A stretch of 64,000 nt of DNA from Vibrio tarriae (GTDB lineage: Bacteria; Pseudomonadota; Gammaproteobacteria; Enterobacterales; Vibrionaceae), in the NCBI RefSeq assembly GCF_002216685.1, contig NZ_CP022353.1:2604001-2668000 (forward strand). The letters are read 5' to 3'. Position 1 is the first letter of the stretch. Each line of letters starts with the position of its first letter. This document shows positions 20,469 through 47,919 of this stretch, piece after piece. Both the position numbers and the translations under genes were made by a program. The notes under the pieces are model-generated. The model was not told the DNA's origin. It saw nothing but the letters and a program-made list of their open reading frames with translations, and ran no database searches.

Positions 20469-20494
20469 CTTATAAACTTTTAGACCAACCTCTC

Positions 20495-28245: not shown

Positions 28246-29145
28246 TCATTCAAGCGGCATCCATGATAATACTGTACGAGCTTTAGCGTTATTTACCAAT
28301 AAGTCTCCAAGAATTTGATTAGAAAGATATTTTCTACCAATAATGTTCAATCCTATACGCAGTAAAGCTACCGGGACAGGGATTAAAATAACCATTCTTC
28401 CATGGGCATGCGCTAATTCCTGAATCAACTGTTTTGTGCTCCAAACTCTATTATCAGAAATGACAAAAATCTGTCCAGCGGCTTCAGGCTTGAAAATACA
28501 TAGTTCAAGAAAGGTAATAAGATTTTCGATCGATACAAAACTTTTTTTGTTATTTACAGAGCCAAACGGCAGTATTGGAAAAATCTTCATAAACCTAGTC
28601 AACTTAGCGATATTTCCAGGTGCTGAAGGTGAATAAACTAATGGAGGTCGAACAATAACAAGTTCTGTAGTAGACTCAGAAGCTAGTTTCCTTAATACTT
28701 TCTCAGCCTCATATTTAGAACACGCATAAGGTTCATTTGGATTACATTCTGATTCTTCATCAAATGGAATATCTTTTGTCTGATTTCCAATAACACCAAT
28801 TGAACTAACAAAGATAAAACGCTTTACTCCTGCCTTTTCAGATTGCTTAAATAGATTAACCACAGCATTAACATTCACTTCCATGAGCAACTTCGTGCAA
28901 TCCAAAGTTTTAGGTAGCCTGTTATGAGCTAAGGCAGCCAAATGCACAATTGATTCAACCCCTTCAAGAGCTGTCCCCCAATTAGTACTCCCTGAAATAT
29001 TACCCACAACAAAAGATCCACCTTCCATATTGTCAGGTGCCTGACGATATGCTGCAATAACATTGGCACGAGCTTTGAGATGCTCAACTAGATGAGAACC
29101 AATATATCCACTAGCCCCTGTAATTAGTATTTTTTTACGATACAT
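28246..29145 (-). CDS. NAD-dependent UDP-sugar 4-reductase/epimerase (WbpV/WreQ-like)
   Basis: A 299-residue extended SDR enzyme: ITGASGYIGSHL at the N-terminus, SSIGVIG, and YACSKYEAEK (YxxxK), with the substrate domain ending in LSWMP. Its C-terminal part resembles the remnant at 25858-26130. WbpV/WreQ enzymes reduce UDP-4-keto-6-deoxy-HexNAc to UDP-D-QuiNAc (or FucNAc), complementing the dehydratase at 26337. The start ATG 29145 is used because it lies directly before the Rossmann motif and just after the GtrA-like stop; a longer start would run into that gene. A general epimerase function cannot be ruled out. Confidence 0.78.
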   Translation of the reverse strand: MYRKKILITGASGYIGSHLVEHLKARANVIAAYRQAPDNMEGGSFVVGNISGSTNWGTALEGVESIVHLAALAHNRLPKTLDCTKLLMEVNVNAVVNLFKQSEKAGVKRFIFVSSIGVIGNQTKDIPFDEESECNPNEPYACSKYEAEKVLRKLASESTTELVIVRPPLVYSPSAPGNIAKLTRFMKIFPILPFGSVNNKKSFVSIENLITFLELCIFKPEAAGQIFVISDNRVWSTKQLIQELAHAHGRMVILIPVPVALLRIGLNIIGRKYLSNQILGDLLVNNAKARTVLSWMPLE

Positions 29146-29146
29146 A

Positions 29147-29536
29147 TCAAAACTTAAACCAATTATTTGCCACTTTAAAATAGTATTTGGTAATAATAAA
29201 ACCAATCGGAACTGAAGTTAACAATGAAATACCGTATGCCAACCATTCAGGCAAAGAATAGCTTTCCACCCCTAACTTCATAGAAAAAAATCCCACAAAG
29301 AATTGGCACAGATAAGCTAATGGATAGCATAGCAAAGCTAAATAACCTAACCTAGCTGAAAATGTCCATTTACCATTCAATATGTAAGATGATATCAGAC
29401 CTAAACCATAAGAAAGTGCATAAGACACCTGATAGTCAAATATCATATTTAATAAAAGAAATGAAACATAAGATATCGCTGTATTTGTAATCCCAACAAT
29501 GACAAATCTTATAAATTTACTCTCGATACTAATCAT
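29147..29536 (-). CDS. GtrA-family membrane protein
   Basis: A 129-residue protein with four hydrophobic segments and the GtrA pattern at its start (KFIRFVIVGITNTAISYVSF) and middle (YILNGKWTFS). GtrA proteins are thought to flip undecaprenyl-phosphate-linked sugars across the inner membrane for side-chain addition. It lies near a GtrB-type transferase (30446-31438) and a large polytopic protein (31446-33104), which together make a three-part O-antigen side-branch module. Confidence 0.82.
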   Translation of the reverse strand: MISIESKFIRFVIVGITNTAISYVSFLLLNMIFDYQVSYALSYGLGLISSYILNGKWTFSARLGYLALLCYPLAYLCQFFVGFFSMKLGVESYSLPEWLAYGISLLTSVPIGFIITKYYFKVANNWFKF

Positions 29537-30443
29537 TGTGACTTAACCATTCAACGTAAATCTTCTTAATATTAACCTCCAGTGAAGAAGGTAGCCATAG
29601 GCCTGCATAGCTGTTCTTGACACAAGGAATATCCAAAGCATTTTGCTTCTCCTTAGAAAAGGATAGCAACAATGGCCTGCAGATCAGACGCTCAACAATA
29701 TACTGGATCTGCAATATTGAGCTAGGTTTCCCAGACACCAGATGAAACACTTTTCCTTCAAAATAACGACGACCTACGAGATCAACAGTAAAGCGGGCAA
29801 TATCATCGACAAATACATAATCCCGCAACGTGTCTAGTGTACCAAAAATCATCGAGTTACTTCGCTGTAGTCCGTTTAAAATCAGTACCTGTATCAATCC
29901 CATACGTAAGTTCTTACGTATAGGGCCATACACCGAAGATAACCGTAACACGATAACATGGAAGTTTGTCATCACTCGTTGCGCGGTTTCTTCCTGATAA
30001 AGTTTAAGGACGCCATAAGGACGAAGAGGATTTGGTGAAGAACAATCACTGATAGCACTTTGTCCCTCAAACAAACCACCAATAGAACTGAAGAGAACAA
30101 ACCGAGGTTTTACTTTTTCTACAAAATTCAACCTAGACAATGACTGACACAAATTCATGAAAACATTCTGTTCTGACACTATTTCATCATTAGTAGCACT
30201 GAATCCTAGCTTGCCTGCTGACCATAATACGGTCAACTGACACTCCCTATCAATAATAGATATTTTATGACTGATGAATGCTGAAATAAGCTTGATACAT
30301 TCCGTTTTAGACCAGTCTAACCTATGAGATTCTTCAAGATAATACCCCTGTTGTATAAGATTAGTATAAATAGAATCACCAACTAGGCCTTTTCCTACCA
30401 AAATAACTGCACTATTTCGATTTTCTGAAAACATGAAATACAC
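29529..30443 (-). CDS. NAD-dependent epimerase/dehydratase family protein
   Basis: A 304-residue SDR-type protein. The N-terminal loop is VGKGLVGDSIY rather than the usual GGxGxxG. Family features follow: FSSIGGLFEG, RPYGVLKLYQEE (YxxxK), LRLSSVYGP and DYVFVDDIARF. The atypical cofactor loop and its place between gtrB-like and gtrA-like genes suggest it makes or alters the sugar added as side chain. GTG at 30443 with AGGA nine bases upstream is the preferred start. Reaction not identified. Confidence 0.7.
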   Translation of the reverse strand: MYFMFSENRNSAVILVGKGLVGDSIYTNLIQQGYYLEESHRLDWSKTECIKLISAFISHKISIIDRECQLTVLWSAGKLGFSATNDEIVSEQNVFMNLCQSLSRLNFVEKVKPRFVLFSSIGGLFEGQSAISDCSSPNPLRPYGVLKLYQEETAQRVMTNFHVIVLRLSSVYGPIRKNLRMGLIQVLILNGLQRSNSMIFGTLDTLRDYVFVDDIARFTVDLVGRRYFEGKVFHLVSGKPSSILQIQYIVERLICRPLLLSFSKEKQNALDIPCVKNSYAGLWLPSSLEVNIKKIYVEWLSHND

Positions 30444-30445
30444 GA

Positions 30446-31438
30446 TTACAATTCCTTGAAGAACTCACGAATTATTTCATCTTTAGAACGGTCAACAACA
30501 GAGTAAGTCGGTTTACCGTGAATATGTTGAACAATTACTGCCAGATATTCCGCAATAACACTCAATGTAATCGCAAGGCCCGAACCAATGAATAACGTAG
30601 TCACAATTTGAGATGTCCATCCTGTAACACCAATACTTTCGGGATCAAAAGCTTTATTCAACAAAATATAGAAAGCCATCAACACACTAACAACAAGCAT
30701 AACTAGACCAAAAATAGCCGCAAAACGTAATAATTTAGCATCAGACGTCATGACTAGCCGTCTTGCATGAGAAACTAAGCGACTTAGATTGTAACCAGAA
30801 GTACCAGTTTCAACATATCGCTTATCAAGCATAGTCGTTTTATAAACAGATACTTTATTTGTGAACCAAGAAATCACAATGTCAAGATAGCCATCATGGC
30901 TACACACTGCTGCGGCAGAGCGACCAACACTACCACGAATTAATCGGAAACTATTGAAATTACCAATATACCTATTCTTTGTCAGATACATCATCAATTT
31001 CTTATAATATTTAGACGACAAATCTCGATAGGGAGATTTGTGTATCGCTTCAGTAGAATTGGTATAAACAACATCTGCCGATTCAGCGACTGCCAGCTTC
31101 AGCATATTTAAAATATGCTTGGGGTGATGCTGCAAATCTTCGTCCAAGGTGACAATCCAATCACCAGACGAATAAGAAATGCCTGCAGCAGTCGCTGGAT
31201 GCTGACCATAGTTTCTAGCTAGCGTAATAATATGAATCCATTCGACTTGTTCGTATTTTTTTAAAACCTCACATGAACCATCCTTAGAATCATCATCGAC
31301 GAAAATCAATTCAGAAATATAACAAGGGAATTCTTCTGATATCCATTTCTTTCTAATTTGTTCTATTTCATAAACGAGAGAATCTAGGTATTTTTCTCCG
31401 GCGTAAACCGGAACAACAATAGATACACTAATAGACAT
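30446..31438 (-). CDS. GtrB-like undecaprenyl-phosphate glycosyltransferase (GT2)
   Basis: A 330-residue enzyme: a GT2 domain (VSIVVPVYAGEK, FVDDDSKDGS, TLDEDLQHHP) followed by two C-terminal membrane segments around 240-305, and the end LAVIVQHIHGKPTYSV typical of GtrB/Dpm1-type transferases. It should attach a sugar from its nucleotide donor to undecaprenyl phosphate on the cytoplasmic face. Its place with the GtrA-like gene and a polytopic GT-C-like gene supports a side-chain module. Confidence 0.85.
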   Translation of the reverse strand: MSISVSIVVPVYAGEKYLDSLVYEIEQIRKKWISEEFPCYISELIFVDDDSKDGSCEVLKKYEQVEWIHIITLARNYGQHPATAAGISYSSGDWIVTLDEDLQHHPKHILNMLKLAVAESADVVYTNSTEAIHKSPYRDLSSKYYKKLMMYLTKNRYIGNFNSFRLIRGSVGRSAAAVCSHDGYLDIVISWFTNKVSVYKTTMLDKRYVETGTSGYNLSRLVSHARRLVMTSDAKLLRFAAIFGLVMLVVSVLMAFYILLNKAFDPESIGVTGWTSQIVTTLFIGSGLAITLSVIAEYLAVIVQHIHGKPTYSVVDRSKDEIIREFFKEL

Positions 31439-31445
31439 ATTCTAA

Positions 31446-33104
31446 TCACTCAGGCTTGGCATAAATTAAAATTTTCTCACCATCAATAATTCGATTTTTT
31501 TTGTAATCATCCAACATCTCAAGATAAGCATTAACACAATTTATTGTTGAGTTAAAAATATCTAAGACAGCAAGAATATATAATCTTTTTTCATTATAAT
31601 TTGGTATTGCACATACAGTCCTTTCAATCGGTTCTTTATCAAAAACTTGAACTAAATTATAGCCATTCTCACGAACAAAGCGCTCATAATCAGAGCGATT
31701 ATAATGGGGATAATCAGGGCTCATCACAACTAAATCCGGAGAATATTTAGTTAAGCTATCAATATCATTACATCCTTGCCAGGCATGGCATCCTGTCTTC
31801 TTCAACTTATCTGGCATTGCTACATTTGGTGAGTAAGCCACTTTAATGCCTTGATTAAATTTATCAAGAAAGTTCCAACTTAAATTTTTCGTTCTTAATT
31901 CTTCTTTGAAATATCTAGACTGTTGCTTATAAATTGAGAATGCAATATTATTACAAAGAATTAACAATATTATTACCAGCACAAAAACCTTAATAAAATA
32001 AAAAGTCTTCGATAACTTAACAAATATGAATTCGCTAAAAAAATAGGCTACATTTAAAAATGAAAAAAGAAAGACTGGCAATAAATAGGTGTCAGCAATC
32101 CAAAGCCTCGCCTTATAAATATAGATAGCGCTAACTAAATTCGAAAATATCAGACTAAGTGCTAAAATACTATGCTTTTTAAAAAAAAATGGCACAAAAA
32201 AAACCAACAGTGCATTCAATACAACAATAGGATTGTTAGATAACACGTCCATCCAAAGAGGAAATACATCTGAGAATGCTTTACTAGAATGCTCATCGCT
32301 TATATAAGCTTGAGCCGATAAAAACCTTTCTGGTTGAATAAAAGCAAAAGGATGTACAATAAAAAAAACGACAAAGAAAGTAACAAATGCCTTTATAATC
32401 GATTTTCTTACTTCAAAAAATCCAATTTTCCTCTCGACTTCATATATAGAAATAAAGTATAAAAACAAGAAATTTATACCAACGAAGAAATTGGAAATAA
32501 TAAATGCCTGTTTACATAAACTAGACAATGATAAAAATATAATTGCCAAAATAAATTTATTACCACCTATCGACTTTGATTGGTAAATATCGACAAATAA
32601 TAGAATTGAGACAATCTGTAAAAATAGACCCAACGATTCTGGATGAATCTCATTAAGAAAATGAGACAACATTGGATTTGTTATAAATGCAACAGTTATG
32701 ATAAAGGCGATAAAGAAAGAATCAAATATTTTCCTGCTTAAAAATAGCATCGATATCGCACAAAACAATCCAATAATAAAGTGAGTTGCTCTTACAATAA
32801 TGTTAATAGCAACAGGTTCAGAAACTCCAACTATTTTCGCAAAACCTACAATAAAGAAGTTTAGAGAAAAGTAAGTCCATCCATAGTATTGTGAATGGTA
32901 ATTAGCATTCATATTGTAGTATGAATGTGATGTCAGACCGTTAATAGAATCTATAATGGAATGTTCATCAACTCCCATAAACTCAACAGAACTTACATTC
33001 CCTAAAACACAAACAAAGTAAAGGATAAAAAAAATCAAGACCAAAAGTATTTGGTATTTATCATCACATTTAAAATAACTCATACAATTTTCCATAAAAA
33101 TCAA
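31446..33104 (-). CDS. Large polytopic membrane protein, probable GT-C glycosyltransferase
   Basis: A 552-residue protein with about ten to twelve hydrophobic segments and a C-terminal soluble part of about 140 residues. Near the first loop is the acidic sequence MGVDEHSI; Asp/Glu pairs at this place are common in GT-C transferases that use lipid-phosphate sugars. With GtrA and GtrB partners directly downstream, it is the likely serotype-specific transferase of the module. A Wzy-type polymerase is the alternative, since no other candidate polymerase is visible in this operon. Start codon choice between 33104 and internal ATGs at 33095 and 33083 is open. The 200 bases upstream hold no gene. 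Confidence 0.6.
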   Translation of the reverse strand: MIFMENCMSYFKCDDKYQILLVLIFFILYFVCVLGNVSSVEFMGVDEHSIIDSINGLTSHSYYNMNANYHSQYYGWTYFSLNFFIVGFAKIVGVSEPVAINIIVRATHFIIGLFCAISMLFLSRKIFDSFFIAFIITVAFITNPMLSHFLNEIHPESLGLFLQIVSILLFVDIYQSKSIGGNKFILAIIFLSLSSLCKQAFIISNFFVGINFLFLYFISIYEVERKIGFFEVRKSIIKAFVTFFVVFFIVHPFAFIQPERFLSAQAYISDEHSSKAFSDVFPLWMDVLSNNPIVVLNALLVFFVPFFFKKHSILALSLIFSNLVSAIYIYKARLWIADTYLLPVFLFSFLNVAYFFSEFIFVKLSKTFYFIKVFVLVIILLILCNNIAFSIYKQQSRYFKEELRTKNLSWNFLDKFNQGIKVAYSPNVAMPDKLKKTGCHAWQGCNDIDSLTKYSPDLVVMSPDYPHYNRSDYERFVRENGYNLVQVFDKEPIERTVCAIPNYNEKRLYILAVLDIFNSTINCVNAYLEMLDDYKKNRIIDGEKILIYAKPE

Positions 33105-33304: not shown

Positions 33305-34063
33305 TTAATTCTTAAAAAGACCCATTCTTTCATACAGTTTTAACTCATCCACTGTGTCTACCTCTACCCATCCATTATTAATAAAATCAGGTTTAACATT
33401 CCAGCCATTGTCAATTAGAGCTTGAATAAAACTAGTCATATACATGTTTTCAAAATTTTTTCCATCATAGACTTTCGCACGTTCTAACGAATGATAGAAA
33501 TTTATAAAATCCTTAATTTTTCCGGCAGAGACTTTGACAAGGCCTATATATTGAGCTTGAATTTCATCTTTAGACTTGGCCTTTTTCCCTAGCTGACAGA
33601 CAAATCCCATACTGTTTGTTTTAAAAGTTTCTGCATCATCTAATGGATTTTCCATCCTGAGTGACCATAGTTTTTCCCAATCTAAATCAGCTGTAATAAC
33701 TACATCACCGGATGTATTGAGTAAGGATTGTAACACTTCTAACTTATAGACTATGTCACCATAGACGATGACTAAGTCTTCATCATCTTTCATGAAACTC
33801 TCAGCACAAAATAGAGTTTCCACCATATTAGTTTCTGCAAAATTTTCATTGCGATATTGTTTGATACTGGGAGCAATAATTTTATCTTGCAGATAACCAC
33901 CAACTAAAGCTATATCCTTATTGTCTATGCCTAACATACACATGATATCTAACTGATGGTGTAATAATGGTTTTCCACTTAACTCGACCATACACTTAGG
34001 CCTGTCGTTTGTATAAGGACGAAGCCGAGTACCCTGACCTGCGGCTAGAATGATAATTTTCAT
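33305..34063 (-). CDS. Nucleotidyltransferase, probable CTP:phosphoglutamine cytidylyltransferase (Cj1416-like)
   Basis: A 252-residue NTP transferase with the classic LAAGQGTRL loop at residues 6-14, RPKCMVEL with Lys23, the metal-binding YGDIVY segment, and a C-terminal WVEVDT. The fold suits LicC-like cytidylyltransferases. It overlaps the amidohydrolase gene and follows the glutamine-kinase homologue, in the same transcription order as C. jejuni Cj1418-Cj1417-Cj1416. By that analogy it would join CTP and L-glutamine phosphate into CDP-L-glutamine. The ATG at 34063 is chosen because TTGGAGG precedes it. It is the last gene of the predicted phosphoramidate set. Activity inferred from family and context. 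Confidence 0.78.
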   Translation of the reverse strand: MKIIILAAGQGTRLRPYTNDRPKCMVELSGKPLLHHQLDIMCMLGIDNKDIALVGGYLQDKIIAPSIKQYRNENFAETNMVETLFCAESFMKDDEDLVIVYGDIVYKLEVLQSLLNTSGDVVITADLDWEKLWSLRMENPLDDAETFKTNSMGFVCQLGKKAKSKDEIQAQYIGLVKVSAGKIKDFINFYHSLERAKVYDGKNFENMYMTSFIQALIDNGWNVKPDFINNGWVEVDTVDELKLYERMGLFKN

Positions 34064-34677
34064 TTTGCCTCCAATAAAAAATGGGATTTTATAATTTGTA
34101 CGTCCCAACTATCGGGTGTACTTTTTCGCTCAGGATGCCACATAATACCAAGCCATGGATATATTTTATGTTTAATCGCTTCAATAACACCATCTTCTGT
34201 TTCCATTAGTGGTATCAAATCTTTGCCTAGCCCTTCTATTTTTATTGCAAAGTTATGAAAGCTATTTATCTTAGTAATACCCAGTTGTACAGGCAACAGC
34301 CCAATTAATAAAGTATGATCAATAGCAACATGCCCTGAAACTTTAACTAATAAGCCATCTTGATAGTTATTAATATATTGCATACCTCTACATACACCTA
34401 AAACAGGAAGACTATTTTGTTTGGAGTACTCGAGTATGGCCAGTTCTAATTCATCGCGCTTGGGCATTTCTCCAATATCATTGCCCCCAGAAAGAATGAA
34501 ACCATCTAACCCCAATGCCTGAAAATAATGAGTGTGATTTTCTATCTCACTACAAAGGGGAATCGGTAACAATCCTATTTTATACAATAAAGATGCCCAA
34601 TTAACATCTAGCGCATCTCTCACTTCCTTACCACCCAAAATAATATCTCGTCGTTGTGTTATTCCTATTCGCTTCAT
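34060..34677 (-). CDS. Class I glutamine amidotransferase-like hydrolase (Cj1417-like)
   Basis: A 205-residue peptidase C26/GATase1-fold enzyme. Nucleophile Cys96 is in LGVCRGMQ, and His181 with Glu183 is in WHPER, giving a full Cys-His-Glu triad. C. jejuni Cj1417 of this family hydrolyses CDP-L-glutamine to cytidine diphosphoramidate plus glutamate. Here the gene lies between homologues of the kinase (two bases away) and the cytidylyltransferase (overlapping), so the same role is likely. A generic gamma-glutamyl hydrolase is the alternative, but it would not explain the conserved trio. Confidence 0.8.
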   Translation of the reverse strand: MKRIGITQRRDIILGGKEVRDALDVNWASLLYKIGLLPIPLCSEIENHTHYFQALGLDGFILSGGNDIGEMPKRDELELAILEYSKQNSLPVLGVCRGMQYINNYQDGLLVKVSGHVAIDHTLLIGLLPVQLGITKINSFHNFAIKIEGLGKDLIPLMETEDGVIEAIKHKIYPWLGIMWHPERKSTPDSWDVQIIKSHFLLEAK

Positions 34678-34679
34678 AA

Positions 34680-37600
34680 TTAATAAATCACTCTGATTAA
34701 TGAGTTGGAAGGGTCTAATTCTAGCTTATGTGCTTGAGATAATCTCCTATACAAATTCTCACCAATCCCTATCGCAGCAGGTAGGCCAAATTCAGCAGAA
34801 CGAATTGCCATATGAGAATTTGCTCCACCATACATTGTAATAAGACCTGCTATTCCTTGACCAAATAACCAATCATACCCAGGATCTGCTTGAGGAATCA
34901 TCACTATTTTATCTTTGACATTTAATTCTTTAGTATGATTTTTCAAATTTAAAACTAGAGCACAAACTTTTTTTGAACTTATATAATTAGGATGGCTTTC
35001 ATTTAGAGTAAAAAATAAAAAATCTTGTTCAGAAGTAATTAAAGGCGGCAGTTCACAAGCTTGGCTAAGCATTCTTTCAGATTTATTTAATTTTGCTTGA
35101 CTACGTAGTATGTCCGACTGTTCATACGACATTATTTTCTGATCAAGGAAACTCAGTAAATATGTAATTGGTAACTCTGCTAACTCTTGTCGCGATAATT
35201 TATTTTTTTCTCCCCAAATCACAATCCCATCCAGCGCTTTAGACAGACTTCGGCTGAAGATAAACTTTGCTTTCTCTCGACCTTCAATCGCTGAACGCAT
35301 AAAACTTTCTAATTGTTTGTCTGAACCATTAATGCCTAGCTTACGCAATTCATTAAAAAATGGAATCTTTTCTTTATCCCAAAAATGTGTGCTAGCTTTT
35401 TTCTGGGATGATAAAGACGTATGCTCAACTATAGGAGCTAGAAAACTAGTAGGATCTTCATGATAAGCTTGTGAGGTAATATCATATGTTCCAGGTCTTA
35501 AGTGACCATATTTTTTTACAAACTCACTCCACAAGAGTTGTTTATGAAGAACCTTATTAGCATCTTCAGATAGTGTATGTGAAACCGTATTGAGCGATAA
35601 TAGAAACTCTTCCTGAGCTCTTAGTGTGATTAAGCCAATTGACACTGCATCTTTTAGAAAATTTACGGCAATAAAGCCAGCTCGCGCTAAGTGAGAAAAT
35701 GGTAAAGTGCCCAAACGCTTACAATCATCTAGTAAGGCTTTAATCTGGTCAAGTGAGGTGGTTTCAGTCAAGAATAGGTAATTAAGCTTACTAGAGAGTA
35801 GTTCTATTTTATTAAGATCAGATTCAACTCTCAAAATTCCATTATTCGTTATATTAATCAAACCTTGTTTGAGCAACTTGACATCTTTTAATGAAAATTC
35901 ACCTTGTTCGATTAAGCGTTTCTCCCAACGTCCAAAATTCAAGCTAAGACATGTTGGTATAACATCAAACTCAATTTTATCATGCAAATGCGGGTGAGTC
36001 ACAAGCCAATCTATATAGAAGTCAACTAATCGAGTAGCGAGTTCATTAGGTAATATTTGAGGAATAAAGGAATTAAAACTGGCTCGAACATCAATATATG
36101 GTTTACCAGCAAAACGTTTGAGCAAGCCATAGGGACGCACATCTCGGTAGCCATATTCAAAACGTTGTTCAGCCCATATATCATCTAGAATTAGATACTT
36201 ATATAGTGAATATGCAAGCTCTCCAGGATTGGTACCAATTATCTCTGCCGGGTTCCAATCTGGCATGTTTCCAAAAATAATTTTACTACCTAATAGGGAA
36301 GAATCAGAAACTTGTAAATGGCAATAATAATCACGGGCTTGTTTAATTTTTTCAGTCACACGAATATCTAAATGTTCAGAAAACTCTTGACTTAAAGTAA
36401 TAGGCCTAACCTGAAAAATATGCACATCATTTTGATTATCAATTGCAAATTCAATATCAAGCGCATCGTAACCTAATAATGCTTCTATTTCTTGGATTGC
36501 AATAAGTAACTTTTTAATTTTTGCACATGAAACTAAATCAATATTTGTTTTTTTATAAAAATAAAAGACAGTATTTTTAGTTACTTTTCCTGATGTAATA
36601 CCTTCTGTAGAACCAGACTCTTCATAATTAATAACTAAATATGGAGAGCCATGTTCTAAGGTACGTGTAAAAACAACACCACTCATGATTACATCAGTCA
36701 ACATTGGCTGTATTAGAACCTGATCTTCATCTTGCAAATTATGATACGAAGCAATAACAGCCTCTATTGCACTATCTAAGCTCTTTGCATCATTTTTAAC
36801 ATTTAATAAACTCGTATATGCTCCTGCATTTGATTGACTAAATGAATCTTCACTACACGCACTAGAGCGGACGACTAAATTCTCACACTTGAACATTAAC
36901 TGTATTTTATTGATAAAAATATTTTTCTTACATTTCCAGTCAGCAACACTAAACGATACTTGATCTTGTATAACGGCAGTCTTTAACATCATTCTCAATC
37001 GGGCGAGGGTTTCTGCTTTAGTACCCATTACAAAATGAGCTAAATCACGCGGTTCATTCAATTCTGCCCATTGCCCCTTTACATCAACCCCTATTAGATC
37101 GATACCTTTCGTTCGAATTAACTCAAGAAGATCCGGTAAAGTAAAATTTTTATAAATTTTATTGTTTTCAGATTGAATTGATTTTAAGAGATTCAGGGCT
37201 TTACCTCGCATACATACTAGCCCAACAAATTCACCTGTAGCCCAATCGAGCTCTATATTACTACCTAAACTCTGTACTCTATTTTCTGAAACAATAACTT
37301 TTTCTGATTCATTAATATCTTTCTGCTCTCGAGCCAAGTAGCGAGTTCGCCAATCACTATCATAGGCAATAGCGGTTTCAATACCCATTCTAGAGAGAAT
37401 ATCCACTATGTGAGAATGATATAAAACGTCACCATAACTTATCCATAACTCATCTACTTGTGCTAAATCAACCATTAGTAATGAACCTGCACTTTTAGTC
37501 TTTTCCCAATCCTTATTTTCCAAAAAATTCACTGGGAGATGAAAATCATGCTTTATTTCATTTGCTTTAAATCCAAGAACAACGTCAACATCTGCTGATA

Positions 37601-37718
37601 GTGATCTGAGGCTATTGAGTTGCCAGTCTAAAACTGTGGTACCATTTACAACTTTTGACAGAGTAGGATCAATTCCTAAGTGAGGTAAACCTGCTGCTAA
37701 GATTACTATTTTTTTCAT
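34680..37718 (-). CDS. NTP-transferase-like domain fused to an L-glutamine kinase homologue (Cj1418-like)
   Basis: A 1012-residue multidomain protein. Residues 1 to about 235 are an NTP-transferase-like domain (IVILAAGLPHLG, SYGDVLYH, WAELNEPRDLA) that lacks the GxGTR signature. Residues about 260-450 are a PEP-synthase/PPDK-type ATP-grasp domain (VVRSSACSEDSF, AGAYTS, MSGVVFTRT, FQVRPIT). A helical middle region follows, and the C-terminus is a phosphohistidine domain with GGANSHMAIRSAEFGLPAAIG, His969 being the swivelling phosphate carrier. C. jejuni Cj1418 (about 770 residues) has the ATP-grasp and His domains and phosphorylates the glutamine amide nitrogen. Here the same kinase part is extended N-terminally. 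Neighbours overlap or abut on both sides. Confidence 0.82.
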   Translation of the reverse strand: MKKIVILAAGLPHLGIDPTLSKVVNGTTVLDWQLNSLRSLSADVDVVLGFKANEIKHDFHLPVNFLENKDWEKTKSAGSLLMVDLAQVDELWISYGDVLYHSHIVDILSRMGIETAIAYDSDWRTRYLAREQKDINESEKVIVSENRVQSLGSNIELDWATGEFVGLVCMRGKALNLLKSIQSENNKIYKNFTLPDLLELIRTKGIDLIGVDVKGQWAELNEPRDLAHFVMGTKAETLARLRMMLKTAVIQDQVSFSVADWKCKKNIFINKIQLMFKCENLVVRSSACSEDSFSQSNAGAYTSLLNVKNDAKSLDSAIEAVIASYHNLQDEDQVLIQPMLTDVIMSGVVFTRTLEHGSPYLVINYEESGSTEGITSGKVTKNTVFYFYKKTNIDLVSCAKIKKLLIAIQEIEALLGYDALDIEFAIDNQNDVHIFQVRPITLSQEFSEHLDIRVTEKIKQARDYYCHLQVSDSSLLGSKIIFGNMPDWNPAEIIGTNPGELAYSLYKYLILDDIWAEQRFEYGYRDVRPYGLLKRFAGKPYIDVRASFNSFIPQILPNELATRLVDFYIDWLVTHPHLHDKIEFDVIPTCLSLNFGRWEKRLIEQGEFSLKDVKLLKQGLINITNNGILRVESDLNKIELLSSKLNYLFLTETTSLDQIKALLDDCKRLGTLPFSHLARAGFIAVNFLKDAVSIGLITLRAQEEFLLSLNTVSHTLSEDANKVLHKQLLWSEFVKKYGHLRPGTYDITSQAYHEDPTSFLAPIVEHTSLSSQKKASTHFWDKEKIPFFNELRKLGINGSDKQLESFMRSAIEGREKAKFIFSRSLSKALDGIVIWGEKNKLSRQELAELPITYLLSFLDQKIMSYEQSDILRSQAKLNKSERMLSQACELPPLITSEQDFLFFTLNESHPNYISSKKVCALVLNLKNHTKELNVKDKIVMIPQADPGYDWLFGQGIAGLITMYGGANSHMAIRSAEFGLPAAIGIGENLYRRLSQAHKLELDPSNSLIRVIY

Positions 37719-39097
37719 AAAGAGACCGTGAGAGATTTTTTTATTTCTTCAACAATTAAATCTGAAGGTTTTTTATCAGCGTAGTATTGCTGTATATATT
37801 TTCTTAGCTCTTTATTTTTCTTTATCAACACATTACCTTCTATCACATCATGCACAAACTTGCTAATTACTTCTTTTTTATCACTTATAATATAATATGA
37901 AATGAAAATCTTACCAAAATCATTTACCAGTGAGTTAATCTTTTCAGGATTCATCAAATAAAGTGCTGGCTTATTAGTAAAAACATACTCAGCAAGGAAT
38001 GAACTACTATCATGAATTATAGCGTCTGAATAGTAAAAGAGACTTTCATATTCACCTTCATCTAATTGTGTAAAGTCATTCATTTTCCAAAAATTATAAT
38101 AATCATTGGTTTTATCAACCCCCCAATCCTCATGTTCGTACAATTTTGACTTTAATATAGGATGTGGTTTAAAACTCCATTGAGCACTGTCGGAATATTT
38201 AATAGCTAACTTTTTTATAAAATCTGCCAACACTAAAAAAGAAGATAAGGAATTATTATTTTTCTCGATAGTATGGTGGGGAGCGAATATTATTTTCTTT
38301 TTTAAGACTTTTTGCGGTTTCCACACATTAAAATACTTAAAATTATCATTAATAAAAATTTCTGAAGCAGGGTAACCCAGAGCGAAACCATTCTTTATAT
38401 GATATCCTGCTACTTTATTCTGACATTTTAAATGGTAACTATCCGGCCAAAAAACTTTGAACATCTCTAATATAAATTTTGAATTATATATTTCATTTTT
38501 ATCACCAGCGTGATCTGTTGCCATATAATAGTATGGAATATAAAAGCTTAAATATTTCTCATATATTTCTGTATAATACTCAGGTTTAGTTATATTATGA
38601 TGGTTAGTAAATAAAATAAGATCCGGTTTAAGATCTTTTATTTTTATCCAGGAGTCATTTAACTCGTCATAAGAATTTATTACTGGGTATTTTTTATTTT
38701 CAAAATATTCATATGCTAGGTTTAATTCCTCCAACATTTTATCTCTACCATACTGTATATATGGACAAACTAAAATTATTGGCTCAAAAAACGGGTCTAG
38801 TAACATCTTCCTAAAAACTGAATCTACTTTCCATACACTCCTGTGCGTAACTAAGAAAACAATTTTAACCTTACTTTTTTTCTCTATTTTCTTTAAAAAT
38901 TCTTTATGTTTACTCCGTATAGAGTAGATATATATCATTCTTTTTAATTGATAAAAAAAAGCCATTTCCTCTAATTTGGAAAAAATACTATTTTTAAATC
39001 TTAAATAAATAAACGTAGGATTTGACAGAATTTGGTTAAATTTTATTATTTTGATTTTAATTCCTTTTGGAATATATCTCTTTATTAATTTAATCAT
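37715..39097 (-). CDS. CDP-glycerol/polyol-phosphotransferase-like enzyme, candidate phosphoramidate transferase
   Basis: A 460-residue AT-rich gene. The C-terminal half looks like the TagF/CDP-glycerol glycerophosphotransferase family: FAPHHTIEKN, WSFKPHPILKSKL, and SDAIIHDSSSFLAEYVFTNKPALYL. Such enzymes move a phosphate-containing group from a CDP donor. It overlaps by four bases the glutamine-kinase gene, and the pathway's expected product is a CDP-linked phosphoramidate. It is therefore a good candidate for the transferase that decorates the glycan. A glycerol- or other polyol-phosphate transferase is the alternative, though no CDP-glycerol-forming gene was seen. Confidence 0.65.
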   Translation of the reverse strand: MIKLIKRYIPKGIKIKIIKFNQILSNPTFIYLRFKNSIFSKLEEMAFFYQLKRMIYIYSIRSKHKEFLKKIEKKSKVKIVFLVTHRSVWKVDSVFRKMLLDPFFEPIILVCPYIQYGRDKMLEELNLAYEYFENKKYPVINSYDELNDSWIKIKDLKPDLILFTNHHNITKPEYYTEIYEKYLSFYIPYYYMATDHAGDKNEIYNSKFILEMFKVFWPDSYHLKCQNKVAGYHIKNGFALGYPASEIFINDNFKYFNVWKPQKVLKKKIIFAPHHTIEKNNNSLSSFLVLADFIKKLAIKYSDSAQWSFKPHPILKSKLYEHEDWGVDKTNDYYNFWKMNDFTQLDEGEYESLFYYSDAIIHDSSSFLAEYVFTNKPALYLMNPEKINSLVNDFGKIFISYYIISDKKEVISKFVHDVIEGNVLIKKNKELRKYIQQYYADKKPSDLIVEEIKKSLTVSL

Positions 39098-39173: not shown

Positions 39174-40103
39174 TTAACATTTTTGTTTTTTAGTTATGAA
39201 AGTTCTATTAATTAGAAAAAATAATTTCAAAAACCTAAAAAACCATTTTTTTGATGAAAAGAAATATGGGAAAATAAAGATTATTTTTTTTAAAAAGATA
39301 GTAATCTCTTTTTTATAAATAGACTCTAATATTTCATCGTATAGTGCTGTCCTTGAGAATCGATTTGCAGCCTGGATGTAACCATACTTTTCAATAATAA
39401 TTCTAGCTGCTAATCTACGTTCTTCAGAGAAAGTTTTGGTGTCCATTATGCTTGAACCATGCTTTCTATAAAAAACTAATGTTTCATCAATATAAATAAC
39501 ACCATTTCCAAGAATACCTAGTTCAACTGACAGTAAATAATCGTTAATATATTTTAAGGCATTATTATAACGTACAATTTCTAGAGCTTTTCTTCGGATA
39601 CAAAGAGTAGGAGTAGGAATTATCGCATCAGATATAATCTCATCAATCGACAAAGTAGGTTTAAATATAAAATTAAAATGATTGATTATTTTTTTCCCTG
39701 TGCAACTATCAAACCATATCATATTAGAGTAACAAAGTTGAACTTCAGGTTGAGCCTGCAATGCTCTTACCTGCCGTTCTATCTTATCCTCCCTCATCAT
39801 GTCATCACCTGCAAATGGAATAATATATTCAACTTCACTATCTTTAAGAGCTTTTTCAATCAAAGAATTATAATTATCAGATATGCCTTTATTTTCCTTG
39901 TTAAAAATGATGTGAAGCCTTAGACCTTTTTTTTGAATATAATTCCGAATTACATCTCTTGTTTTATCTGATGAGTCATCATCTGCAATATAAATATCAA
40001 CTTTAGAATATGTTTGACTCAGAACTGACTCTAGACACGGTATAATAAAATTTTCGTGGTTGTAACAGCCAATTAATACTGCTACTTTGGGTTGTTCAGT
40101 CAT
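39174..40103 (-). CDS. Glycosyltransferase family 2
   Basis: A 309-residue GT-A enzyme: VAVLIGCYNHENFI at the start, IADDDSSDKT (DxD region) near residue 40, and FAGDDMM near residue 95. Length and AT-rich composition are typical for O-antigen glycosyltransferases. It should add one sugar to the lipid-linked repeat at the cytoplasmic face. It lies just downstream of the ABC flippase gene. The last about 45 residues are hydrophobic and basic and may bind the membrane. Sugar and linkage unknown. Confidence 0.8.
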   Translation of the reverse strand: MTEQPKVAVLIGCYNHENFIIPCLESVLSQTYSKVDIYIADDDSSDKTRDVIRNYIQKKGLRLHIIFNKENKGISDNYNSLIEKALKDSEVEYIIPFAGDDMMREDKIERQVRALQAQPEVQLCYSNMIWFDSCTGKKIINHFNFIFKPTLSIDEIISDAIIPTPTLCIRRKALEIVRYNNALKYINDYLLSVELGILGNGVIYIDETLVFYRKHGSSIMDTKTFSEERRLAARIIIEKYGYIQAANRFSRTALYDEILESIYKKEITIFLKKIIFIFPYFFSSKKWFFRFLKLFFLINRTFITKKQKC

Positions 40104-40108
40104 ATCTT

Positions 40109-41890
40109 TTAGTACCTAGATAACTCCACCATCTTACGGAATCCATCGTTACGGGTAAGTAGATCATTAAAACTTCCATTATCCGTGACAGTTCCATGAT
40201 CAAAAATGATCAATCGGTCAGCATTTTTTAGCGTAGAAAGACGATGAGCGATCACTATAATCGTTCTATCTCCTTTGAGAGATGTAATCACATTAGATAT
40301 ATCATGTTCGGTCGTGGCATCCAGAGCTGAGGTAGCTTCATCTAAGACAATAATTTCTCGGTTAAAATACAACGCTCTGGCAATTACTACCCTCTGCCGT
40401 TGCCCGCCGGATAAATTCTTACCATTTTCCCCAAGATTAAAATCTATACCACGTTCATTACAAAGGTCAGATAATCCAGCTTTACTCAAAGCATCGATAA
40501 CGATCAGATCATCAATTTCGGTCGAATTTACGCCAAATGCGACATTCTCGCGAAGCGACCCATGAAGAATAAAAGGAGCCTGACTTACATAACTGATGCT
40601 GTTGCGAATACCTTTATACTCATTTAAAGAAATTGCTTTACCATCAATCATAATTTCACCAGAATCTATAGGAAGCAGCCCAGATAACACATCAGCGAAG
40701 GTAGTTTTACCTGCACCAGAAGTACCTACGATTCCTATAAACTCCCCTCTATTAACTTTAATATTTATATTTTTAATTCCTTTGCCTTCTTTGCCAAGAT
40801 AAGAGAAATTAACATTTCTAAAATCAATACTATCGCTGAATGTCAATTTTTTCGATATGTTATCGTTATTTTTTTCCAAGGACTGAAACTCTTCAATAAT
40901 TGTTTCAACTGCATTACTGGATGATTTAATTTGAGAGTAACAATACAAGAGCCTGTTCATCATTGGAGCAAGACGAATAGCAATAGCTGCCAGCAAAGTA
41001 ATGCTCGCAATTCCTTCTGAAGGATCTGATGATGTAATTAAGATATAGCAAATAAAAATAACAATCCCGAACATTAGAATTGCTTCACTCAAATATACAG
41101 GTATATATTGAACTAGCATGTTTTTTTTATCTATTTCGCTTACTTTTCTATTAGAACTATCATATTTATCTAAAAATACTTTTTCTTTACCAATCAATTT
41201 GGTATCTTTAATTCCAGCTAGTGACATTGTCAAAATTGAAATATTTTCTTGATTAGCCTTAACATATTTAGCATTAATTTCATGCGTAACACGTCTTATT
41301 ACTTTCATTTGAATCCATAACAATCCACCAACCACTATAGCTGTAATCATAGATATACCTGAATATTTCATCATTAATATCATAATCAAAGAAAAACAGA
41401 CCATAGCGTTAGATATAAACATTATGCACTGGATAAGATAAGAATTTACAACCCTACTGACGACTGCAGTCAGATTATTGATAATGTTAGATGAATTTTT
41501 AGTCAAATGATAAGTCATCGGCGCGTGGATATACCCGGACATAAGATTTTTACAAATATCATTGCGCCAATCTCTAACCATATCAAACTGGAACTTCTGC
41601 TGAAATAGCATGTAAATGTTCTTGATAATAAAAGACATGCCAACACAAACGGCGATAAATATTACAAAAGTTCGAGTATCAGAGAATCCCAAAGTATCAT
41701 ATACTTGTTTTATTGCCCCATTATCAGTAACAATATCGGGGTTCATCGAAATAGTAACCAAGGGATATAACAGTGCTACTCCCATAACCTCAAATGACGC
41801 GGATACCACTGCGGAGAGCAGCACCAATACCATTCGAAACTTGAAATCAGAGCCGTATTTTTCTACAAATTCAAAAAAAAGTTTAAACAT
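40109..41890 (-). CDS. PglK/MsbA-like ABC transporter (probable oligosaccharide flippase)
   Basis: A 593-residue fused ABC exporter half: six membrane segments in the first about 310 residues, then an ATPase domain with Walker A GTSGAGKTT, Q-loop SQAPF, signature LSGGQRQRV, Walker B IIVLDEATSALD and an H-loop IAHRLST. PglK-type flippases of this kind move complete lipid-linked oligosaccharides. No Wzx is present in this operon (rmlB to 28.2 kb), so this is the likely flippase for its repeat unit. Lipid A export by MsbA is less likely, because that gene is normally elsewhere and next to lpxK. Confidence 0.82.
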   Translation of the reverse strand: MFKLFFEFVEKYGSDFKFRMVLVLLSAVVSASFEVMGVALLYPLVTISMNPDIVTDNGAIKQVYDTLGFSDTRTFVIFIAVCVGMSFIIKNIYMLFQQKFQFDMVRDWRNDICKNLMSGYIHAPMTYHLTKNSSNIINNLTAVVSRVVNSYLIQCIMFISNAMVCFSLIMILMMKYSGISMITAIVVGGLLWIQMKVIRRVTHEINAKYVKANQENISILTMSLAGIKDTKLIGKEKVFLDKYDSSNRKVSEIDKKNMLVQYIPVYLSEAILMFGIVIFICYILITSSDPSEGIASITLLAAIAIRLAPMMNRLLYCYSQIKSSSNAVETIIEEFQSLEKNNDNISKKLTFSDSIDFRNVNFSYLGKEGKGIKNINIKVNRGEFIGIVGTSGAGKTTFADVLSGLLPIDSGEIMIDGKAISLNEYKGIRNSISYVSQAPFILHGSLRENVAFGVNSTEIDDLIVIDALSKAGLSDLCNERGIDFNLGENGKNLSGGQRQRVVIARALYFNREIIVLDEATSALDATTEHDISNVITSLKGDRTIIVIAHRLSTLKNADRLIIFDHGTVTDNGSFNDLLTRNDGFRKMVELSRY

Positions 41891-41893
41891 GCC

Positions 41894-43261
41894 CTACTTT
41901 TTTTCCATAACTGACTTAACCAAATTATAATCAATACTGAAACCAAGCTTCGTCGCCAAAAAATATAATGGCCTACGTGCAGCTTTAGGAAGCATACTTG
42001 CCGTAAAGCCAATCGTGTTAGCATACAGCGTATAATAGGCTTTCAAGTAACTTTTTCGACTGAGCATCATAGCAGAACCATGTGACTCAAGATTAATTAA
42101 ACAGATTCCCAAAGCGTCCTCAATTTCCTGAAAACGATGTTCCCAACGGCCTTTGGCTTGAATACAGGCTTGTGAACCAGCGATAATTTCCGCTCGATGA
42201 GCATCATCTTTCAGCAATTTTCTTGCTATATCATATGCTTCTGCTGATGAACGGAACATTGGGATATCAACATACCCCTTTGTGAACCTTTCAATACCAG
42301 AGTTATAACTCGATATTAAACATCCATTTGACGCCATAATATCCATGATTCGCCAAGGGAATCCATCAACCGCCTGCGCATGAGAAACACTTAAGCAAAG
42401 GTGACTACGATTGTAAATGTCTTGATTATGGCGAAGGCTGTAAACAGCCTGTGGATGAAATGCCATCGCCAAATTCGGGCAAGCCTCTACAGTATCCAAC
42501 CAACTGCTAGTTCCAAAAAGAGCTAAACCTAAATCAGACATTAAACTCAATGTACAAATACGGTTTTGTGCACTACTGATCGCACCAAAATCCTGAGGCT
42601 TAAGATAATCAAGAATAAAACTTAGATTCTTCTCCTTCAGATATGCTTCTGGATCGGCATAAAAGTTTTCCGATAGGTATTGTACCGCTCGTTTAACATC
42701 TGGCGTATTATGAGCTTGTAATAGCGTATTCAGACCATGCGGTCCTTTAAAATTACTGCCAATAAAACTGATATTATGCAACTTATCGATTGGCTCGGCT
42801 TCCACCGCAGTACCAGAATTGATCATATGAATGTAATTTTCAGAGACCCCATTCGATTTTATTTGCTCCCTTGCATCATTGGACAAACAAAAAAAGTGAT
42901 ACCTCTCAGGATTAGCAAGGATCTTTTCTTTATCATTGTAGAATGTAAACGAATCAGCTTCCCAAATTACAATAGGACAATCAAACTGATCTTCAATAAA
43001 CGAGGGCTTCGTATTGTTAAAGCTAATAACTAAGTCTGGACGAAAGTCTTTAATATCAGCCTTCAATTTATCCGAATCTACAAAACTAGATTCTTGGTTA
43101 TTACTATTCCAAGATTTAAGTAGAAACTCAGCACAGTTAACAACCATCACTTGATTGCCACTCTTTTCCAGTGCTTTTATCAGACCTTCGTAGTAACTAA
43201 TTAGTTTGAACTCGCCATTAACAAACAAATGTGATGAGAAAGAAAGCAGAACCTTGGCCAT
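41894..43261 (-). CDS. CgeB-like glycosyltransferase
   Basis: A 455-residue GT-B type protein. Recognisable parts are an N-terminal region (KVLLSFSSHLFVNGEFKL), ISFIGSNFKGPHG before the donor domain, and DGFPWRIMDIMASNGCLISSYNSG, which resembles the CgeB/GT1-like donor site with a glycine-rich tail. Such proteins occur widely in O-antigen loci. It is two bases from the aminotransferase gene and two from the ABC transporter gene, so it is co-translated with the 3-amino-sugar genes. It may transfer that sugar; this is inference from position. Confidence 0.72.
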   Translation of the reverse strand: MAKVLLSFSSHLFVNGEFKLISYYEGLIKALEKSGNQVMVVNCAEFLLKSWNSNNQESSFVDSDKLKADIKDFRPDLVISFNNTKPSFIEDQFDCPIVIWEADSFTFYNDKEKILANPERYHFFCLSNDAREQIKSNGVSENYIHMINSGTAVEAEPIDKLHNISFIGSNFKGPHGLNTLLQAHNTPDVKRAVQYLSENFYADPEAYLKEKNLSFILDYLKPQDFGAISSAQNRICTLSLMSDLGLALFGTSSWLDTVEACPNLAMAFHPQAVYSLRHNQDIYNRSHLCLSVSHAQAVDGFPWRIMDIMASNGCLISSYNSGIERFTKGYVDIPMFRSSAEAYDIARKLLKDDAHRAEIIAGSQACIQAKGRWEHRFQEIEDALGICLINLESHGSAMMLSRKSYLKAYYTLYANTIGFTASMLPKAARRPLYFLATKLGFSIDYNLVKSVMEKK

Positions 43262-43262
43262 A

Positions 43263-44372: not shown

Positions 44373-44783
44373 ATTTTCTCAGGAATATATATTTCAGCTT
44401 GGCCAGTAATAACTTTTTGCTTACCAACTTTACAATAAGTATCGAAATAAACTCTTCTTTTCTCTTTATCAATACTATTGACGACAACTGTCGCGACAAC
44501 AGTATCATCGATATATACTGGCTTTCTGAATTTTAAAGATTGCGATACATAGACACAGCCCTCTCCAGGCAGTTTCGTCCCGAATAAAGCAGAAAAAAAA
44601 ACTTGAACTTATCATTCCATGAGCAATACGTTTTTTAAACCTAGACTGATTCGCATAGTTTTCATCTAGATGCACTGGGTTACGATCCCCTGATAAGCCA
44701 GCAAATTGTTTTATATCCGCATCTGTTATCGTTTGTGAATAGGATGCACTCATTCCAATTTCAAGATCACCAATATCATACAT
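44369..44783 (-). pseudogene. MaoC-like (R)-hydratase gene, frameshifted in a homopolymer
   Basis: The start (GMSASYSQTITDADIKQFAGLSGDRNPVHLDE) is a textbook MaoC/hot-dog enoyl-CoA hydratase, with the Asp-His pair in GDRNPVHLD. The frame is lost at nine A on the + strand (44593-44601). With eight, it continues through SALFGTKLPGEGCVYV and KFRKPVYIDD to TGQAEIYIP and a stop at 44369, about 137 residues, the normal size. It lies inside the dTDP-3-amino-sugar genes, next to an N-acyltransferase. A likely role is making an (R)-3-hydroxyacyl-CoA for N-acylation. As read, the product would be truncated and would end with unrelated residues. Confidence 0.83.
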
Positions 44784-46795: not shown

Positions 46796-46796
46796 C

Positions 46797-47861: not shown

Positions 47862-47919
47862 TCTACGTCCATTTTTTGTTAGAGGCTTATTACGATGCGT
47901 CTGCATACACATTTACAGG

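What the first reader, a model, noticed from the sequence alone, without database searches (positions are those of the whole stretch)
33305..39097. Probable phosphoramidate biosynthesis and transfer cluster in a Vibrio O-antigen/capsule locus
Four tightly coupled - strand genes encode, in transcription order, a TagF-like phosphotransferase, a PEP-synthase-like kinase with phospho-His domain, a Cys-His-Glu amidohydrolase and a cytidylyltransferase. The last three match the C. jejuni set Cj1418-Cj1417-Cj1416 in family and order. There they make L-glutamine phosphate, CDP-L-glutamine and cytidine diphosphoramidate for the capsule O-methyl phosphoramidate. Such a P-N modification would be an unusual decoration for a Vibrio surface glycan and could affect phage and complement sensitivity. 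Seen: motifs, order, overlaps. Known: the C. jejuni pathway. Inferred: the same chemistry here.
Basis: partly seen in the sequence, partly recalled or inferred. Interest (0 to 1): 0.92.

Follow-up and report, generated by a model that had tools for sequence, protein, structure and literature searches.

The report
Vibrio genes for phosphoramidate-tagged surface sugar
Four neighbouring genes in a Vibrio surface-sugar locus look like a kit for making a rare phosphorus-nitrogen group from glutamine and attaching it to a sugar, by a route that shares its first three steps with Campylobacter jejuni but seems to finish differently.

Summary
Four tightly coupled - strand genes at 33305-39097 encode a TagF-like transferase, a glutamine-kinase homologue, a gamma-glutamyl-CDP-amidate hydrolase homologue and a CTP-transferase, in that order. 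The last three are 39.7%, 38.0% and 44.9% identical to C. jejuni proteins, in the same gene order, so the chemistry up to CDP-phosphoramidate is well supported by homology; no assay exists. Such fused kinases form one clade, from Vibrio to Prochlorococcus and SAR86. Among 62 loci, those with fused kinases lack the C. jejuni-type 3'-kinase (MpnD): 0 of 13 against 34 of 49 unfused, and the neighbouring methyltransferase family: 0 of 13 against 26 of 49. Instead 10 of 13 have a TagF-family gene within 4 kb, against 6 of 49. Most likely the cluster transfers unmethylated phosphoramidate directly from CDP-phosphoramidate to an O-antigen or capsule sugar: a new variant of a known pathway. Transfer step and product are inferred; the contrasts rest on one clade, not on many independent events.

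The parts
37715..39097 (-). TagF-like (PF04464) transferase, proposed phosphoramidate transferase
34680..37046 (-). glutamine kinase core (MpnA/Cj1418 homologue): ATP-binding domain and phospho-histidine domain
   Evidence: NF004508 917 bits; 39.7% identity over 785 aa to C. jejuni, E 4e-170; PF01326 and PF00391
37035..37718 (-). fused N-terminal pseudo-nucleotidyltransferase domain of the kinase (residues about 1-228)
   Evidence: co-linear with the CTP-transferases; equivalents of G26, R28, K38 and D251 lost in 13 of 13, of W148 in 13 of 13 (12 Tyr, 1 Ser); D118, E160, W247, E249 kept in 13 of 13, R151 in 12 of 13
34812..34814 (-). codon of His969, the putative phospho-histidine in GGANSHMAIR
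   Evidence: conserved in at least 19 of 20 kinases; same motif in the C. jejuni protein; catalytic role recalled
34060..34677 (-). gamma-glutamyl-CDP-amidate hydrolase homologue (MpnB/Cj1417), Cys96-His181-Glu183
   Evidence: NF045546 123.8 bits, under the cut-off of 250; 38.0% identity over 208 aa to C. jejuni; the three residues conserved in at least 17 of 18
33305..34108 (-). CTP:phosphoglutamine cytidylyltransferase homologue (MpnC/Cj1416); likely start at 34063
   Evidence: 44.9% identity over 256 aa to C. jejuni, E 6e-70
39174..47912 (-). upstream part of the same glycan cluster: GT2, MsbA/PglK-like ABC protein, GT, aminotransferase, acyltransferase, FdtA, RmlA, RmlB (a dTDP-3-acetamido-hexose pathway, inferred)
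28246..33104 (-). downstream part of the glycan cluster: DUF6541 protein, GT2, two epimerase-family genes, GtrA-like protein

Best explanation
The four genes make and transfer an unmethylated phosphoramidate (P-NH2) to a sugar of the Vibrio O-antigen or capsule. [quoted passage not shown] the CTP-transferase converts it to CDP-L-glutamine; the amidohydrolase removes glutamate, leaving cytidine diphosphoramidate. The TagF-like GT-B protein then moves phosphoramidate from CDP-phosphoramidate to a sugar hydroxyl with release of CMP, as TagF does with CDP-glycerol, before export of the lipid-linked glycan. The fused N-terminal domain, a dead copy of the CTP-transferase that keeps several of its conserved residues, may bind or hand over the labile N-phosphoglutamine. 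Shown here: homology, order, residue conservation, gene associations. Inferred: every reaction here, the direct transfer, the role of the N-domain, the product. I hold the donor steps at about 0.9 and direct unmethylated transfer by the TagF-like protein at about 0.65.
For: C. jejuni homologues in the same order, E 4e-170, 3e-35 and 6e-70. Published pathway: Cj1415-Cj1418 make CDP-phosphoramidate 3'-phosphate from glutamine, ATP and CTP (PMC11800397, passages). The window's TagF-like family occurs in 5 of 196 Vibrio genomes, 4 of them among the 5 with the kinase (Fisher 4e-7), and beside the kinase in Roseivirga. Over 62 loci, an MpnD-type gene lies within 9 kb of 0 of 13 fused and 34 of 49 unfused kinases, a PF04464 gene within 4 kb of 10 of 13 and 6 of 49, a C. 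jejuni-type methyltransferase within 9 kb of 0 of 13 and 26 of 49, a PF13469 or DUF2972 gene within 9 kb of 0 of 13 and 17 of 49. The PF04464 neighbours fall into groups with only weak mutual similarity. No CDP-glycerol synthase over cut-off in the own genome.
Against: No assay and no glycan structure. The fused kinases are one clade, so the contrasts are not independent; independent-pair tests had too few pairs (MpnD against TagF: 8 pairs, median p 0.5). Within the unfused loci alone, TagF against MpnD gives p 0.06. Three of 13 fused loci have no PF04464 gene within 4 kb (L210, L213, L243). G030 has the TagF-like family in an LPS-core locus without the kinase, and among 398 Pseudomonadota genomes only the window's own is positive for both (8 TagF-like, 15 kinase). 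The window TagF-like protein passes PF04464 only marginally. The hydrolase is under the NCBIfam cut-off. Absence of the methyltransferases is weak evidence for an unmethylated product, because knock-outs of Cj1419 and Cj1420 gave no apparent change in the C. jejuni capsule (PMC11800397, passage).
Confidence: 0.65

Rival explanations
1. Campylobacter-like O-methyl phosphoramidate: the 3'-kinase and methyltransferase steps are supplied by genes elsewhere in the genome.
For: The own genome has an APS kinase, 35% identical to the C. jejuni MpnD-type protein over residues 4-142. Which gene adds the methyl in C. jejuni is not settled (PMC11800397, passage).
Against: That gene follows two genes that I recognise by eye as cysD and cysN, an ordinary sulfate-assimilation operon. 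No MpnD-type gene or C. jejuni-type methyltransferase was found within 9 kb of any of 13 fused kinases, and the own genome has no DUF2972 or PF13469 match.
Confidence: 0.11
2. Two separate systems: the triad makes a phosphoramidate attached by an unknown transferase, while the TagF-like protein adds glycerol- or polyol-phosphate, as tagF and tagD are thought to do in the C. jejuni HS1 capsule.
For: In C. jejuni HS1-type loci tagF and tagD sit with mpnABCD (PMC7901785, passages). The TagF-like family exists without the kinase in G030. G112 has a TagD over cut-off on another contig.
Against: No TagD over cut-off in the own genome: best 47 bits in a 487-aa frame against 165.4 needed; other CDP-polyol synthases were not searched for. 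The TagF-like gene overlaps the kinase gene and is tied to the kinase in Vibrio and Roseivirga.
Confidence: 0.14
3. The end product is a different glutamine-derived group: the TagF-like protein uses CDP-L-glutamine and transfers N-phosphoglutamine, or the hydrolase acts after transfer.
For: None direct; the order of the last two steps cannot be read from sequence.
Against: The hydrolase keeps Cys96, His181 and Glu183 and accompanies the kinase in 63 of 67 loci.
Confidence: 0.06
4. A decayed or silent acquired cluster with no product.
For: Low G+C (0.33 against 0.44-0.49 in flanks) suggests acquisition.
Against: All four frames are open, with overlapping or nearly touching ends and conserved catalytic residues.
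Confidence: 0.04

Closest known systems
C. jejuni mpnABCD (Cj1418-Cj1417-Cj1416-Cj1415) O-methyl phosphoramidate pathway
   Same: Three enzymes in the same families and the same order, 38-45% identical, in a surface-glycan locus
   Different: No mpnD-type 3'-kinase, C. jejuni-type methyltransferase or DUF2972 gene in the locus; kinase fused to a pseudo-nucleotidyltransferase; TagF-like gene attached
TagF/TarL CDP-polyol phosphotransferases (PF04464)
   Same: GT-B fold by model, marginal PF04464 match; CDP-linked donor and CMP release proposed
   Different: Distant (14-18% identity in structure alignments); found with a phosphoramidate module and no TagD over cut-off in the own genome
Roseovarius pelagicus and Pseudohalocynthiibacter plasmid clusters
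   Same: Same fused kinase (45.9% over 100% of the query); in Roseovarius the same order TagF-like, kinase, hydrolase, CTP-transferase
   Different: The Roseovarius TagF-like protein shows no BLAST match to the window's; PF04464 21.2 bits by hmmscan, 22.7 in the six-frame search, cut-off 22.1
Phosphoramide groups in Shewanella MR-4 and Xanthomonas campestris LPS
   Same: Phosphoramide reported on LPS (PMC3210612, PMC8042644; one passage each)
   Different: I could not check whether those genomes carry the triad

Membership tests
glutamine kinase, MpnA/Cj1418 type (NF004508/PRK05849) | full-length family match over the curated cut-off | tested here: met
   917 bits, cut-off 501, positions 5-788 of 789; the model itself is named hypothetical protein
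glutamine kinase, MpnA/Cj1418 type (NF004508/PRK05849) | ATP-binding and phospho-His domains with the GGANSHMAIR motif | tested here: met
   PF01326, PF00391; motif identical in C. jejuni; catalytic His recalled
glutamine kinase, MpnA/Cj1418 type (NF004508/PRK05849) | single-module enzyme of about 780 aa as in C. jejuni | tested here: not met
   1012 aa with fused N-terminal domain; the C. jejuni ORF is 774 aa
glutamine kinase, MpnA/Cj1418 type (NF004508/PRK05849) | ATP-dependent phosphorylation of glutamine amide N | not testable with these tools
   needs an assay
gamma-glutamyl-CDP-amidate hydrolase NF045546 (MpnB/Cj1417) | score over curated cut-off 250 | tested here: not met
   123.8 bits; 3 of 3 Campylobacter genomes pass with 305-324; of 17 further homologues scanned, none from Campylobacter, 15 match at 86-126 bits and 2 do not at E up to 1e-22
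gamma-glutamyl-CDP-amidate hydrolase NF045546 (MpnB/Cj1417) | class-I amidotransferase Cys-His-Glu triad | tested here: met
   C96, H181, E183; their role recalled
CTP:phosphoglutamine cytidylyltransferase (MpnC/Cj1416) | closer to the C. jejuni enzyme than to phosphocholine cytidylyltransferase, signature residues kept | tested here: met
   208 bits against 46 bits to 1jyk; G26, R28, K38, D118, D251 kept
C. jejuni O-methyl phosphoramidate system | MpnD-type 3'-kinase in the locus | tested here: not met
   none within 9 kb; the own-genome match lies elsewhere, after cysD- and cysN-like genes
C. jejuni O-methyl phosphoramidate system | neighbouring methyltransferases of the C. jejuni kind | tested here: not met
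   no match in the window
C. jejuni O-methyl phosphoramidate system | MeOPN transferase (DUF2972; that Cj1421/1422 belong to it is recalled) | tested here: not met
   no PF11186 match in the own genome; note that the C. jejuni genome searched, G584, had none either
PF04464 CDP-glycerol glycerophosphotransferase | Pfam gathering score in the window protein | tested here: inconclusive
   22.4 bits against 22.1 in the six-frame search, not listed by hmmscan; homologues 25-42 bits
PF04464 CDP-glycerol glycerophosphotransferase | TagF/TarL-like GT-B fold | tested here: inconclusive

The most novel reading that the evidence does not exclude
Kinases fused to a pseudo-nucleotidyltransferase mark a second branch of phosphoramidate biosynthesis. 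In C. jejuni the donor is given a 3'-phosphate, making it PAPS-like, which would suit the sulfotransferase-type genes found in part of the loci with MpnD; in this branch CDP-phosphoramidate is used directly by CDP-X, CMP-releasing transferases (TagF-like, or a CDP-alcohol phosphotransferase in SAR86), giving unmethylated P-NH2 on glycans of Vibrio, Roseovarius, Prochlorococcus, SAR86 and others.
Probability: 0.55. Interest if true: 0.85.

Novelty: new variant of a known kind. Interest (0 to 1): 0.72.

Why it matters
Biological P-N bonds are rare, and a 2019 review says that the O-methyl phosphoramidate modification of sugars had so far been identified only in Campylobacter (PMC6429109, passages). 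A Vibrio O-antigen or capsule cluster, and a broad clade of fused enzymes in mostly marine bacteria, would show that phosphoramidate decoration is wider and has at least two transfer chemistries. It makes testable why C. jejuni adds a 3'-phosphate to its donor, and gives a candidate for the transfer step. In C. jejuni the MeOPN group is reported as a receptor for several phages (PMC8949473, passages), so a similar role in marine phage-host pairs is an obvious question.

Tried and rejected
The first TagF-like model, from 4 sequences, had pLDDT 51 and was not used. A profile search of solved structures with 4 TagF-like rows found nothing up to E 1. I considered phosphocholine, polyol-phosphate and teichoic-type readings and rejected them as main reading for the reasons given under the rivals. 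I considered the fused domain as a second active CTP-transferase and rejected it, because the Gly, Arg and Lys of the nucleotide-binding signature and one of the two acidic residues taken as metal ligands are lost in 13 of 13 (roles of these residues recalled). Independent-pair tests on the tree had too few pairs to support or reject the associations. The tree is of the quick kind, without bootstrap. Promoter and terminator scans found no more than shuffles. Three papers on the C. jejuni enzymes were not held, so their details are recalled.

Of the 120, 113 showed the kinase and 77 both other genes in stretches of at most 8 kb. 42 of those genomes (43 handles typed, one twice) were taken for wide flanks by my choice, mostly leaving out Pelagibacter. 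39 regions were fetched; three genomes were left out (Legionella with the kinase in pieces, one with the same contig as a locus held, one with a partial kinase). Of 67 loci examined, 62 entered: four without hydrolase and CTP-transferase and one duplicate plasmid (L060, same as L042) were dropped; L214, lacking the CTP-transferase, was kept. itself counted 62 complete triads with the duplicate in and L214 out. One side of the kinase is under 4 kb in 1 of 13 fused loci and 10 of 49 unfused ones, and under 9 kb in many, so absences are weaker there. The Litorilituus neighbours were looked at by eye only.


Full report
What is there. The four ORFs lie exactly at the coordinates given, are open, on the - strand, and overlap or nearly touch. 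They sit in an O-antigen/capsule region: to one side (5614-19711) a cluster with Wzy-, flippase-, Wzc- and Wza-like genes, then GfcB-, GfcC- and YjbH-like genes (20456-24173), a sugar-1-phosphate transferase (25296-25850) and a PseB/FnlA-like dehydratase (26337-28208); around the finding, genes for RmlA, RmlB, FdtA, an aminotransferase and a hexapeptide acyltransferase (43263-47912), glycosyltransferases, an MsbA/PglK-like ABC protein and a GtrA-like protein; on the other side WaaL-like ligase, heptosyltransferase and Kdo transferase genes. G+C of the cluster is 0.33 against 0.44-0.49 in flanks, as often in acquired glycan loci.

Comparison with C. jejuni. Since the protein database was off, I reached C. 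jejuni by a pattern scan for the conserved histidine motif, which returned a C. jejuni strain (L081, later L190). Its genes run KIN-GAT-NT with overlaps, as here, with an APS-kinase gene and methyltransferase genes upstream. Window against C. jejuni: kinase core 39.7% over 785 aa, E 4e-170; hydrolase 38.0% over 208 aa, E 3e-35; CTP-transferase 44.9% over 256 aa, E 6e-70. The CTP-transferase finds phosphocholine cytidylyltransferase only at 46 bits. NF045546, gamma-glutamyl-CDP-amidate hydrolase, is the hydrolase's best NCBIfam model, but at 123.8 bits against a cut-off of 250. The three Campylobacter genomes searched pass it (305-324 bits). Of 17 further homologues that I scanned, none from Campylobacter, 15 match it with 86-126 bits, one finds a PuuD-type model instead and one finds none at E up to 1e-22. 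So the window protein is a homologue, not a formal member. Published work says that Cj1415-Cj1418 make CDP-phosphoramidate 3'-phosphate and that loss of Cj1421 and Cj1422 removes the modification from GalNAc and heptose (PMC11800397, passages). The names mpnA-D are from PMC7901785 (passages).

How common. The kinase family is over its cut-off in 5 of 196 Vibrio genomes and 15 of 398 Pseudomonadota genomes. Of 72,556 plasmid records 15 have a match, one of them only an ordinary PEP synthase; they include Roseovarius, Pseudohalocynthiibacter, Vibrio alfacsensis and Azospirillum. One unannotated phage-labelled record has a match. The pattern scan stopped at 120 stretches, ranging from Pelagibacter and Prochlorococcus to Helicobacter and Clostridium; 113 show the kinase and 77 also both other genes within stretches of at most 8 kb. 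In the wide-flank set the three genes keep one strand and one order in 59 of 61 loci.

The fused domain. Kinase residues 1-225 align along their length with the CTP-transferase. In all 13 fused kinases examined, the residues equivalent to Gly26, Arg28 and Lys38 (kept in 60, 61 and 61 of 61 CTP-transferases) are gone and Asp251 is Asn or Lys, while Asp118, Glu160, Trp247 and Glu249 are kept in 13 and Arg151 in 12; Trp148 is not kept. It is therefore probably a dead copy that may still bind something. On a tree of 62 kinases the 13 fused ones are one side of a single branch (SH-aLRT 100, quick method): the window and four other Vibrio genomes, Roseovarius, SAR86, Prochlorococcus, Dadabacteria, Litorilituus, Marinicaulis, an Osedax symbiont and Synergistaceae (names).

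What travels with it. Among the 62 loci an APS-kinase-like (MpnD-type) gene lies within 9 kb of 0 of 13 fused and 34 of 49 unfused kinases (Fisher 4.5e-6); a PF04464 gene within 4 kb of 10 of 13 and 6 of 49 (1.5e-5). Without the five Vibrio loci the fused counts are 0 of 8 and 5 of 8 (p 3e-4 and 0.005). Leaving out the one fused locus whose PF04464 match is under the Pfam cut-off gives 9 of 13 (p 1e-4). The C. jejuni-type methyltransferase is near 0 of 13 and 26 of 49 (3e-4); at a laxer threshold one SAR86 gene appears (E 3e-8). PF13469 sulfotransferase or DUF2972 genes are near 0 of 13 and 17 of 49 (0.013). These p values ignore relatedness. As the fused kinases are one clade, this is essentially one contrast; independent pairs could not reach significance, and inside the unfused set the TagF/MpnD exclusion is only p 0.06. 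What argues for function rather than mere common descent is that the TagF-like neighbours fall into groups with weak or no detected similarity: window, L039, L041, L060 and Roseivirga; L040, L212, L214, L231 and L243; Roseovarius; Prochlorococcus (strongest link of the window's to another group E 1e-5), and that they lie on different sides of the triad. Of the three fused loci without PF04464 inside 4 kb, SAR86 has a CDP-alcohol phosphatidyltransferase gene just before the kinase, Synergistaceae a PF04464 match under the cut-off at 5 kb, Litorilituus none on that contig. Among unfused loci without MpnD, Agrobacterium vitis has a CDP-alcohol phosphatidyltransferase gene and two others LicD genes nearby (L055, L247). 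All three families are known for CDP-linked donors (recalled).

Mechanism. The most economical reading is glutamine to N-phosphoglutamine to CDP-glutamine to CDP-phosphoramidate, then direct transfer of unmethylated phosphoramidate to a sugar hydroxyl by the TagF-like protein with release of CMP. In C. jejuni MpnD instead adds a 3'-phosphate, which makes the donor resemble PAPS; that would suit the sulfotransferase-type genes seen in part of the MpnD loci. This two-branch idea is inference: 22 of 34 MpnD loci show no PF13469 or DUF2972 gene within 9 kb, and that the product is unmethylated rests on missing genes whose role in C. jejuni is itself unproven (PMC11800397, passage).

Novelty. Searches of the open paper library listed no paper whose title or shown abstract reports phosphoramidate genes in Vibrio, the fused kinase or a TagF-like phosphoramidate transferase; one search listed 20 of its 30 papers, and the library lacks most subscription journals. 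Phosphoramide groups are reported in Shewanella MR-4 and Xanthomonas campestris LPS (PMC3210612, PMC8042644; single passages), so unmethylated phosphoramidate on LPS may have precedent. The cluster is a new variant of a known kind.

Noticed in passing
L063 (Agrobacterium vitis plasmid NZ_AP023281.1), 5143-15051: The triad lies with LysE exporters, an asparaginase, a tRNA-ligase-like protein and a CDP-alcohol phosphatidyltransferase, with no glycan gene annotated near it: perhaps a small phosphoramidate natural product.
   Followed up: partly
L040 6519-8267 and L212 13685-15961: A gene with a sulfatase-family match (24.3 and 36.7 bits, cut-off 25) follows the TagF-like gene in a Vibrio and in a Dadabacteria genome.
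   Followed up: partly
L060/L042 (Vibrio alfacsensis pVa1): The CTP-transferase and TagF-like genes look shortened or frame-shifted compared with relatives, and the CTP-transferase is not in the annotation table; described only.
   Followed up: no
L076 (Legionella tunisiensis): A fused-type kinase appears in several pieces; described only.
   Followed up: no
L200 9971-11227 (G030): The window's TagF-like family in a Vibrio LPS-core locus, beside what looks by eye like the Kdo transferase gene, with no kinase over cut-off in that genome.
   Followed up: partly
L064-L183: The glutamine-kinase motif turns up in many Pelagibacter and other marine single-cell genomes, and 36 of 113 kinase stretches show an APS-kinase-like gene, so phosphoramidate chemistry may be common in seawater bacteria.
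   Followed up: partly
MT837632.1 (phage-labelled record, 9540 bases), 673-3006: A glutamine-kinase homologue, 33.9% identical, in an unannotated record from human faecal samples labelled as bacteriophage.
   Followed up: no
window 5614-24173: A second glycan cluster with Wzy-like, pyruvyl transferase, Wzc, Wza and GfcB/GfcC/YjbH-like genes.
   Followed up: no
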